A stretch of DNA of 7,152 bases. Source: Candidatus Fermentibacterota bacterium (GTDB lineage: Bacteria; JAFGKV01). The notes beneath the pieces were generated by a model. That model was not told the DNA's origin. It saw only the letters and a program-made list of their open reading frames with translations, and ran no database searches. Positions within the stretch are counted from its first letter, which is position 1. The number at the start of each line of letters is the position of its first letter. The stretch is from positions 1 to 7,152 of the forward strand of contig JAUXFG010000180.1 in assembly GCA_030620115.1 (NCBI GenBank). The letters are read 5' to 3'. This document shows positions 587 through 5,713 of the stretch, piece by piece. Made by a program: the position numbers and the translations under genes.

Positions 587-1022
587 TTCCTTGGCCTCAT
601 GTGCCTGGAGAGTACGTGTGACGCTGCCTCCGAACAGCTATCGCGGGGGGCAAGTCGCGCTCGAACTGCTCCTTGCGCTGGCTCTCTTGGTGGTGATCTC
701 TCCCGTAGTGGTGGGAGGCCTTCGGGGTGCGGGGGAGGTTCGCAGACGATCGAAGGAGATGTCTATTTCGTTGCGCCGGGAGGTATGGTTTCTGGGTCGC
801 CTCCGGAGCACAATGGCGGCGTCTCGCCGTGACGAGATTCCGCGGATTGATGAGCAGGTTGTCCTGGATCGAACGCCTCTTGCCAACGTATCCACGGAGG
901 AGACTTCCAAGATCACTGTGGTTAGATTCAAGATGGAGGATCTTCTTCTGGTCAGACTGCGGCCCGACCAGCCTGCATGGCTGATTGGAGGGCTTCCACA
1001 GACGAGGCGATGGCCGCCATGA
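576..1022 (+). CDS. gspJ: GspJ-like minor pseudopilin
   Basis: From ATG 576 the protein has 148 residues. The prepilin site is RGG|QVALELLLALALLVVISPVVVGG, with glycine at -1, glutamate at +5 and a hydrophobic helix. The globular part contains a basic stretch (RRRSKEMSISLRREVWFLGRLRS) and beta-like segments. Its position between the I-like and K-like genes supports GspJ, part of the I-J-K tip complex. The start is uncertain. ATG 576 has GAGGG at 563-567 and overlaps gspI by 11 bp, but gives a 25-residue leader. GTG 618 has GGAGAG at 607-612 with a good spacing and gives an 11-residue leader (MTLPPNSYRGG), more usual for this class. The ATG was kept because of the operon's overlap pattern. The protein is shorter than many GspJ proteins. 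Confidence 0.72.
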   Translation: MQNDSLASCAWRVRVTLPPNSYRGGQVALELLLALALLVVISPVVVGGLRGAGEVRRRSKEMSISLRREVWFLGRLRSTMAASRRDEIPRIDEQVVLDRTPLANVSTEETSKITVVRFKMEDLLLVRLRPDQPAWLIGGLPQTRRWPP

Positions 1023-1882
1023 TGGGCCTTATCATCCTTCTTGTTGGTTCCCTGATTGTGGGCTTGGCAATGGATACCGCGCTGGATATGCGTCTCGCGC
1101 TGGTGGCTGTGCGCCGAGCTGAGCAGAGAACTATCGCCGAGCTGGAGGCTCGTTCCCTCATGGAGCTGGCGGCGAGAGAGCTCTCCTTTGATCCCGATCG
1201 TAGACGGGATTCGCGGAATGATAGCTGGGCTTGTCTCACACTTCCATCAGACCAGGCCTACCAGGGATGCTGGCCTTCCGATGCCCACGTGGCGGTGACC
1301 GATATGGAGCGTGATCCGCCACCGAAGCTCTTGGCGATGATACGGAGGAAAGCGCCTACGCTTCTTCCGAGACTTCGCTCGGAAGAAGGAACATCGAACA
1401 TCGAACATCGAACATCCAACGCCGAAATGGGAGCCTCAGCCGGCCGGCGGAGCAAAAGTGTGATGTTCCGGGATCTGCATATCGACAAAGGATTGTCGAT
1501 GTCGCGTCACAAAACGTTTAGTGTTGAGGGCATGTGCGAGCCCAATGGGGAATCACAGTGGATCAATGTATTGACCGCGGATGAAGACTGCTGGCAGGCG
1601 TTGGGGATATCCACCGCAGCGAGCAAAGCTCTTGTTGCGCGGAGTCGCAGGAGCCTGACCGATCCTGCCGAGCTTCTCTCGGTTGCCGGGTTATCGCCAC
1701 GAGAGCGCCAGTTGCTCAGCCAGCTGGAATCGCAAGGTTTTCTCCGGCTGAGAAGCGAGCTGTTCGCAGTATGCTGCGACATGGCCGGAATATGCTTCAA
1801 GGGGGTGCTCAGGCGAGAGCCGGCAAAGGGCTCGATCCGGATGATCTCCTTCGAGAGAGCCATATCTCATGATGATGCATAG
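977..1882 (+). CDS. gspK: GspK-like minor pseudopilin (tip protein) carrying a translated repeat insertion
   Basis: The protein has 301 residues. The N-terminus has a short polar leader and then MMGLIILLVGSLIVGLAMD, followed by DMRLALVAVRRAEQRTIAELEARSLMELAARELS, which matches the GspK pattern of a helix leading to an ARSxxELA-type segment. As in GspK, there is no glutamate at +5. Residues about 196-252 (INVLTADEDCWQALGIS ... LLSVAGLSPRERQLLSQL) resemble the helix-hairpin-helix-like part of the GspK family. GspK caps the pseudopilus tip with I and J. Residues about 129-149 are encoded by a 28-bp palindrome and a heptad array, an insertion that looks foreign to the fold. The start is uncertain: ATG 977 gives a 17-residue leader before Gly17, ATG 1010 gives MAAMMG|LIILL with a 13-bp overlap, and ATG 1019 makes an ATGA junction with gspJ. 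Confidence 0.83.
   Translation: MADWRASTDEAMAAMMGLIILLVGSLIVGLAMDTALDMRLALVAVRRAEQRTIAELEARSLMELAARELSFDPDRRRDSRNDSWACLTLPSDQAYQGCWPSDAHVAVTDMERDPPPKLLAMIRRKAPTLLPRLRSEEGTSNIEHRTSNAEMGASAGRRSKSVMFRDLHIDKGLSMSRHKTFSVEGMCEPNGESQWINVLTADEDCWQALGISTAASKALVARSRRSLTDPAELLSVAGLSPRERQLLSQLESQGFLRLRSELFAVCCDMAGICFKGVLRREPAKGSIRMISFERAISHDDA
1361..1388. repeat. Perfect 28-bp palindrome (11-bp stems) inside gspK
   Basis: CTTCTTCCGAG at 1361-1371 and CTCGGAAGAAG at 1378-1388 are exact reverse complements separated by the six-base loop ACTTCG. The element is read in frame as LLPRLRSEE (GspK residues 129-137). It ends exactly one base before the first heptad of the adjoining tandem array, so the two probably belong to one inserted element. 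A hairpin this strong inside a coding region is unusual. It could slow ribosomes or mark the end of a mobile or REP-like element. Confidence 0.85.
1389..1423. repeat. Tandem heptanucleotide array (GAACATC x4 plus one degenerate copy) within gspK
   Basis: Four perfect copies of GAACATC run from 1389 to 1416, followed by a degenerate fifth copy, CAACGCC (1417-1423). Because seven is not a multiple of three, the copies are read in changing frames and encode GTSNIEHRTSNA in GspK. The reverse complement belongs to the same heptad family as the intergenic array at 5641-5682. From memory, arrays of this type, translated as (S/C)MFDVRC or TSNIEHRTSN, are scattered through many uncultivated PVC and FCB genomes. 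I know no accepted name or function for them. Confidence 0.88.
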
Positions 1883-5319: not shown

Positions 5320-5449
5320 CTTCTCAATAGATCCGGGCATCCGACCTTCTCCCCATTTCATAGAAGCCGACAGCAGGACACACATAAGACCGGGGGCAAT
5401 TTGAAACGAAACCCAACGCTTTGATGTTCTGGGAATGAGCTGCCATTGT

Positions 5450-5594
5450 GCCCCGAAGGGGCTTGACATACCAGCCCAGGGGAAGCCCGCTATGGCGTAA
5501 CCCTGGGGCACGGAAACAAGATGCCCTCAGCCCTGACGGGGCGAGACATAGAAAGGACAATAGGATAGTGAGGGGCTGTCACGCCCTTTCAGGG
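5450..5594. repeat. Cluster of short G/C palindromes, REP-like or dispersed repeat
   Basis: At least four small inverted repeats lie within 145 bp. They are GCCCC-GAA-GGGGC (5450-5462), CCCAGGG/CCCTGGG (5475-5481 and 5501-5507, with an inner CGC/GCG pair), GCCC-GACGGGGC-type (5530-5542), and the overlapping GGGC/GCCC (5573-5576 and 5583-5586) and CCCT-TTC-AGGG (5584-5594). The wording around the units (gacatacc, gagacata) partly recurs. From memory, intergenic repeats with GCCC...GGGGC and CCCAGGG...CCCTGGG blocks are common in PVC and FCB metagenome genomes, so this is probably a dispersed repeat rather than a gene. I cannot name its family. Confidence 0.6.
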
Positions 5595-5640: not shown

Positions 5641-5682
5641 TTCGACGTTGGATGTTGGATGTTGGATGTTCGACGTTGGATG
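5641..5682. repeat. Second heptanucleotide array, six copies of TT(C/G)GA(C/T)G
   Basis: Six consecutive seven-base units run TTCGACG, TTGGATG, TTGGATG, TTGGATG, TTCGACG, TTGGATG. The reverse complement is the same family as the GAACATC array inside gspK, so the two arrays point in opposite directions about 4.2 kb apart. Just before it lies GCGGCCGC (5628-5635 region), another G/C palindrome, so here too the array sits beside a palindrome, as in gspK. No coding sequence is involved at this site. Confidence 0.88.
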
Positions 5683-5713
5683 TTCTATTCCTCGCAAGTC
5701 TGCAAATTGACAG

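What the first reader, a model, noticed from the sequence alone, without database searches (positions are those of the whole stretch)
1361..1423. Palindrome plus heptad array inserted in frame into gspK
A perfect 28-bp palindrome is followed directly by four exact GAACATC copies and one degenerate copy, all translated without breaking the frame (LLPRLRSEE, GTSNIEHRTSNA). A repeat usually found between genes appears to have landed in a conserved secretion gene and been tolerated. The palindrome could be the end of the mobile unit.
Basis: partly seen in the sequence, partly recalled or inferred. Interest (0 to 1): 0.68.

Follow-up and report, generated by a model that had tools for sequence, protein, structure and literature searches.

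The report
Mobile palindromic element inside secretion gene

Summary
The "perfect 28-bp palindrome" is an inverted repeat with 11-bp arms and a 6-nt loop. The four GAACATC copies and one degenerate copy are real. They are the left end and middle of a dispersed element (window about 1359-1520, 162 bp): hairpin A, heptads, GC-rich centre, inverted degenerate heptads, hairpin B, right-end motif. The genome holds six full copies, about 20 copies of hairpin A and about 255 heptad-array matches. The sister genus's GspK homologue lacks the segment. Placing the ends by motif gives exactly 54 codons, and joining the flanks raises the score against that homologue from 89 to 113 bits. A lineage-specific in-frame insertion is thus well supported. 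The same left hairpin, preceded by AAG-N3-CTA, and a matching right end (AAGCGCCTA) surround different interiors in a deltaproteobacterial and two Anaerolineae MAGs. The ends are absent from the sister genus, and the left end from about 290 sampled genomes. It works like Rickettsia palindromic elements and other in-gene MITEs/REPs, but fits no named family that I tested. The mobilising enzyme was not found; no Y1 transposase lies near the hairpin. Whether GspK still works is untested.

The parts
977..1882 (+). gspK-like ORF (301 aa) that carries the insertion
   Evidence: ORF list; weak NCBIfam T2SS_GspK match, E = 0.007, below cut-off; homologue in the sister genus at 41% identity; position between gspJ-like and gspL-like ORFs upstream of gspD
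1350..1358 (+). Left border motif AAG-CGC-CTA, matching the family-wide AAG-N3-CTA
   Evidence: Base counts upstream of 47 hairpin copies in four genomes
1359..1520 (+). Inserted element by motif-defined ends, 162 bp (54 codons)
   Evidence: Shared borders of six full copies; empty-site test; length and frames
1361..1388 (+). Hairpin A: arms 1361-1371 and 1378-1388, loop ACTTCG 1372-1377
   Evidence: DNA fold; about 20 copies in the genome; compensated stem changes
1389..1416 (+). Four exact GAACATC heptads
   Evidence: Sequence and tandem repeat finder
1417..1423 (+). Degenerate fifth heptad CAACGCC, shared by other copies of the element
   Evidence: Alignment of full copies
1439..1448 (+). 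GC-rich palindromic centre GCCGGCCGGC
   Evidence: Sequence; inverted repeat finder
1458..1469 (+). Inverted degenerate heptad stretch, able to pair with the forward heptads
   Evidence: Consensus fold of six copies
1481..1500 (+). Hairpin B, ATCGACAA-AGGA-TTGTCGAT
   Evidence: DNA fold; shared with the deltaproteobacterial element
1512..1520 (+). Right-end motif AAACGTTTA (family AAGCGNCTA)
   Evidence: Right-end search in six genomes and listing
5641..5685 (-). Second heptad array, without hairpin A, between gspD and the flavin reductase gene; related repeat, not part of the insertion
   Evidence: Tandem repeat finder; weak model match at 24 bits

Best explanation
Window 1359-1520 is one copy of a non-autonomous palindromic mobile element that inserted into gspK after this genus split from its sister genus. 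Shown: it is a dispersed unit with fixed ends (left hairpin A next to AAG-N3-CTA, right hairpin B followed by AAGCGNCTA), the one homologue found lacks it, and the net insert is 54 codons with no stop. Inferred: it was moved in trans by an enzyme that recognises the folded single-stranded ends and joins at AAG-N3-CTA, in the way IS200/IS605-type Y1 (HUH) transposases use subterminal hairpins and matching left and right cleavage motifs. Inferred: the heptads are passenger repeats inside the element that change number by slippage. The gene was kept because this copy happened to be a multiple of three and open in the frame needed, so GspK probably carries a tolerated 54-residue insert, as proteins with Rickettsia palindromic elements do.
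For: Six full copies at 160-196 bits in the genome, aligned end to end. Sister-genus GspK lacks the segment. Motif-defined ends give 162 bp; joining the flanks gives an open frame and 113 bits in one alignment against 88.6 bits with the insert. Hairpin A and right end both recur in MAGs of two other phyla around different interiors. AAG at the fixed offset in 29 of 47 copies, 0-3 at other offsets. Stem pairs change on both sides (G-C to A-T, T-A to A-T). Left and right borders carry the same motif.
Against: Only one GspK homologue without the insert, at 41% identity, so the empty site is not seen at DNA level. No Y1 transposase gene has either end nearby. Known Y1 targets are contiguous tetra- or pentanucleotides (own knowledge), whereas this one is gapped. 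The window copy's right end is degraded (AAACGTTTA).
Confidence: 0.85

Rival explanations
1. Same insertion, but the element is a classical MITE moved by a DDE transposase, with short terminal inverted repeats (CGCTT/AAGCG) and a 3-bp CTA target duplication.
For: CTA stands at both borders of most copies and the C53 copy has CCA at both; CGCTT at the left and AAGCG at the right are inverted repeats.
Against: Four of six full copies do not match at the two borders exactly or match only as the common CTA; the inverted repeat is only about 5 bp; NNN differs between left and right.
Confidence: 0.3
2. The segment is ancestral GspK sequence that the sister genus lost, and only the heptads expanded locally by slippage.
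For: Only one homologue without the segment is known.
Against: The whole 160-bp unit, with both hairpins, recurs between unrelated genes, which local slippage cannot give.
Confidence: 0.03
3. Assembly artefact: the contig joins two places at a repeat.
For: The contig is only 7152 bp in a 296-contig MAG, and repeats break assemblies.
Against: Both halves belong to the same gene in the right order and frame, and the gspK-gspL neighbourhood also lies together in G001.
Confidence: 0.03
4. The insertion is real and the frame open, but GspK is inactivated: the operon is decaying or dispensable.
For: A 54-residue insert of low-complexity origin just before the conserved WINVLTA stretch could disturb folding.
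Against: No stop or frameshift elsewhere in the operon ORFs; the insert lies in a stretch that is already short and variable between the two genera.
Confidence: 0.25

Closest known systems
Rickettsia palindromic elements (RPE; Ogata et al. 2000, 2002, as reviewed in PMC10969869)
   Same: Short palindromic dispersed element, about 150 bp, inserted in frame in protein-coding genes and tolerated.
   Different: Only one clear internal insertion plus one 3'-end case were seen here; different host and, as far as could be compared, a different design with a heptad array between two hairpins. No sequence comparison with RPE families was made.
REP sequences of the GTAG superfamily and RAYT (TnpA-REP) systems (PMC3733652, PMC8266576)
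   Same: Hairpin with an unpaired foot motif, many copies, some inside genes, patchy in several phyla.
   Different: The foot here reads CTAC 5' of the hairpin (GTAG 3' on the other strand), the opposite polarity; no RAYT gene next to it; the unit is 162 bp with two different hairpins.
MITEs inside genes such as QMITE2 of Coxiella (PMC5896051)
   Same: In-frame insertions and a C-terminal extension: enhC with 33 residues from QMITE2, like fabD here.
   Different: Terminal inverted repeats are only about 5 bp here and no parent insertion sequence is known.
IS200/IS605 family ends (Y1 transposases)
   Same: Subterminal hairpins, matching motif at both borders, no evident need for terminal repeats.
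   Different: Gapped AAG-N3-CTA border, no transposase found with these ends.
Heptanucleotide direct repeats (TAACTGA in Beggiatoaceae and others, PMC4679880; cyanobacterial STRR from own knowledge)
   Same: Seven-base direct repeats in few copies, mostly intergenic, patchy across phyla.
   Different: Here many heptad arrays lie inside a hairpin-bounded element or in inverted pairs.

Membership tests
Dispersed non-autonomous mobile element (MITE/REP-like, general) | Multiple dispersed copies with common ends and no coding capacity | tested here: met
   Six full copies with shared borders; no long ORF of its own in the element
Dispersed non-autonomous mobile element (MITE/REP-like, general) | Presence/absence at an orthologous site | tested here: met
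   Absent from GspK of G001; protein level, one homologue
MITE of a DDE transposon | Terminal inverted repeats and target site duplication | tested here: inconclusive
   About 5 bp inverted repeat; CTA at both borders in some copies, mismatches in others
MITE of a DDE transposon | Parent transposon with the same ends | not tested
   Only Y1 genes were searched; no autonomous copy was seen among the loci read
IS200/IS605 derivative | Subterminal hairpins at both ends | tested here: met
   Hairpins A and B
IS200/IS605 derivative | Y1 transposase gene with the same ends in the genome | tested here: not met
   4 PF01797 genes in the own genome and 18 in five others, none with hairpin or AAGCGCCTA within about 1.5 kb
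IS200/IS605 derivative | Cleavage at the border by a Y1 enzyme | not testable with these tools
   Needs biochemistry and an identified enzyme
GTAG REP / RAYT system | GTAG at the 5' foot of the hairpin | tested here: not met
   CTAC or CTAG lies 5' of the hairpin; GTAG only at the 3' foot of the other strand
GTAG REP / RAYT system | RAYT gene flanked by the same hairpin | tested here: not met
   The RAYT-like gene on C200 is flanked by a different repeat, GTCGGGTTA..TAACCCGAC
Rickettsia palindromic element | Sequence membership in an RPE family of Rickettsia | not tested
   RPE consensus sequences were not at hand; the hairpin scan of about 85,000 genomes listed no Rickettsia
Rickettsia palindromic element | In-frame insertion in a protein-coding gene | tested here: met
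   gspK, 54 codons
Known RNA family | Rfam match at gathering score | tested here: not met
   No match over the element

The most novel reading that the evidence does not exclude
A so far undescribed family of horizontally spreading mini-elements, with two folded ends, a gapped AAG-N3-CTA target and free interiors (heptads, other arrays, foreign REPs). It is moved by an unknown enzyme across at least three phyla and, in this lineage, adds new in-frame segments to proteins. The 7-bp units could also switch gspK on and off by slippage.
Probability: 0.25. Interest if true: 0.7.

Novelty: new variant of a known kind. Interest (0 to 1): 0.5.

Why it matters
In-frame palindromic inserts are best known from Rickettsia. 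This is a case in a sparsely sampled uncultured lineage, with borders good enough to predict the empty site. The shared ends around different interiors in distant phyla give a precise signature for finding the enzyme that moves them. They also give a handle on why heptanucleotide arrays, whose spread has had no evident mechanism (PMC4679880), turn up in scattered genomes.

Tried and rejected
Y1 transposase as the nearby mobiliser: PF01797 genes exist in all six genomes checked, but none has the hairpin or right-end motif near it. Known RNA family: Rfam gives nothing for the element. A copy in the sister genus: model hits in G001/G002 are below 28 bits, with 0 left or right ends. Wide distribution of the left end: 0 of 289 other sampled genomes. 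Published sequence: no open paper holds the heptad strings, and the only paper holding an end motif is an unrelated plant-virus paper. Target duplication: inconclusive. The fabD copy as a second clean empty-site test: G001/G002 FabD homology ends at the border, but the downstream spacing could not be compared. Structure prediction was not run, because an alignment of two sequences would give a poor model.

Full report
What is there. The window is contig C286 of a 4.1-Mb MAG. It carries what looks like a type II secretion operon (gspI-, J-, K-, L-, M- and C-like ORFs, then gspD), a flavin reductase and the start of an rpoD-like gene. In the gspK-like ORF (977-1882), positions 1361-1388 form an 11-bp inverted repeat with a 6-nt loop, not a perfect palindrome. 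It is followed by four exact GAACATC copies and CAACGCC. The hairpin folds far better than shuffles.

It is part of a larger dispersed unit. Searching the genome with 1340-1560 finds near-complete copies on contigs C153, C242, C53, C276 and C32 at 74-89% identity. Aligned, they share hairpin A, the heptads, a GC-rich centre, a degenerate inverted heptad stretch, a second hairpin (1481-1500) and a right end near 1520. A covariance model finds six full copies at 160-196 bits, then a tail of partial and heptad-only matches. GAACATC x 3 with up to 3 mismatches matches 129 plus 126 times, with 0 control hits. Overlapping windows of one array are counted separately there.

It is a lineage-specific insertion. 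Among 60 genomes searched, only G001, in the sister genus, gave a GspK homologue. It aligns to residues 6-127 and 192-265 with only a few residues between. The family-wide border motifs put the insert at 1359-1520, which is 162 bp. The motifs come from other copies rather than from the reading frame, yet the insert is exactly 54 codons. Joining the flanks gives an open frame and one alignment of 113 bits, against 88.6 bits with the insert. The luck needed is modest: four of six full copies have a length divisible by three, and two of the three forward frames are open in the window copy.

Other copies. The C53 copy lies at the 3' end of fabD. The fabD frame runs into the element and stops there, giving a tail of about 36 residues, and FabD homology in G001 and G002 ends near the border. 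The other full copies are intergenic as judged by ORF and Pfam context. For several partial copies this rests on ORFs only.

The ends are shared across phyla. A scan of genome contigs (about 85,000 species; own genome left out) for the hairpin found it in a deltaproteobacterial MAG (Meg22_02_Bin_128) and two Anaerolineae MAGs in a related setting. The other hits (Actinomycetospora, Rikenellaceae, Lewinellaceae, a Planctomyces MAG) have different surroundings. In the four genomes (own, G060, G061, G062) hairpin A is usually preceded by CTA[C/G/T]GC and, three variable bases further out, by AAG: 29 of 47 copies have AAG exactly there, against 0-3 at other offsets. Stem changes are compensated at two pairs. 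The deltaproteobacterial element has a different interior but ends in ATCGACAAC..TTGTCGATATCGCGCCGCTAAGCGCCTA, clearly similar to the right end here. Anaerolineae copies end in TCGATCTCGATGCGCTAAGCGCCTA and hold REPs or AACCTGC heptads inside. The right-end pattern has 17, 16, 7 and 10 matches in own, G060, G061 and G062, and none in the sister genus; a few of these matches look like chance. The left end is in none of 289 other sampled genomes, so spread is patchy and probably horizontal (inference).

Mechanism. Shown: fixed structured ends, a conserved left border, a right end that carries the same motif, and no coding capacity. Inferred: movement in trans. The layout (a hairpin at each end, little terminal repeat, the same motif at both borders, free interior) resembles IS200/IS605-type single-strand transposition, but no Y1 gene is linked. 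A DDE-type MITE with a CTA duplication remains a serious rival. The confidence of 0.85 is for the in-frame mobile-element insertion. The Y1-like step alone I put near 0.35.

Heptads. Full copies differ by one heptad, so array length does change within the family. A change of one unit in gspK would shift its frame. No strain data were available to test this. GAACATC arrays also occur without the element in own, G001, G002 and G060, so the array is not confined to the element.

Known or new. In-gene palindromic elements are known: Rickettsia RPEs, REPs inside genes in several species, and QMITE2 at the end of Coxiella enhC. The GTAG-REP definition is not met. No paper in the open library holds the heptad strings, and none relevant holds the end motifs; most subscription papers are not in that library. 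I call it a new variant of a known kind.

Limits. One homologue, no strain comparison, no enzyme, no function test. The organism could not be named with the scans available; among the genomes sampled only G001 and G002 are closer than domain level. Gsp names other than gspD rest on order and weak similarity.

Noticed in passing
window 5400-5566: A stretch between gspD and the flavin reductase gene is itself a dispersed repeat, 91-93% identical at three other places in the genome (C252, C289, C270); part of it weakly resembles the Acido-Lenti-1 RNA (20.3 bits, gathering score 37).
   Followed up: partly
L046, L052, L053, L055, L041 (own genome): A second repeat family: GAACATC heptads forward, a spacer of about 45 bp (..gagatcagaagttgga..), then heptads in reverse, with no hairpin A.
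   Followed up: no
L108 (G000 contig C200:11266-14619): A Y1/RAYT-like transposase gene flanked by four copies of a different palindrome, GTCGGGTTA..TAACCCGAC, a likely ordinary REP system.
   Followed up: no
L237, about 1157-1215 (G000 contig C211): A near-perfect 59-bp palindrome made of two right ends facing each other (TAGGCGCTTTGTGGCGCGACATC..GATGTCGCGCCACAAAGGGGCTA).
   Followed up: no
G060 loci such as L250, L181 (Deltaproteobacteria MAG Meg22_02_Bin_128): The deltaproteobacterial element carries its own 7-base array (GTATCCA/GTATCGG) and a 9-base one (AAATGCCTA) between the shared ends; the same MAG also has 43 GAACATC-array matches.
   Followed up: partly
L144, L145, L162 (own genome): Several hairpin A copies sit directly beside another conserved stretch (AAAAACGTAGATGTG..GGATAAGGACTA), as if elements had inserted at the end of earlier ones.
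   Followed up: no
L146:3144-4214 (-): fabD ends inside a copy of the element, which supplies its last ~36 residues and the stop codon; fabG follows.
   Followed up: partly
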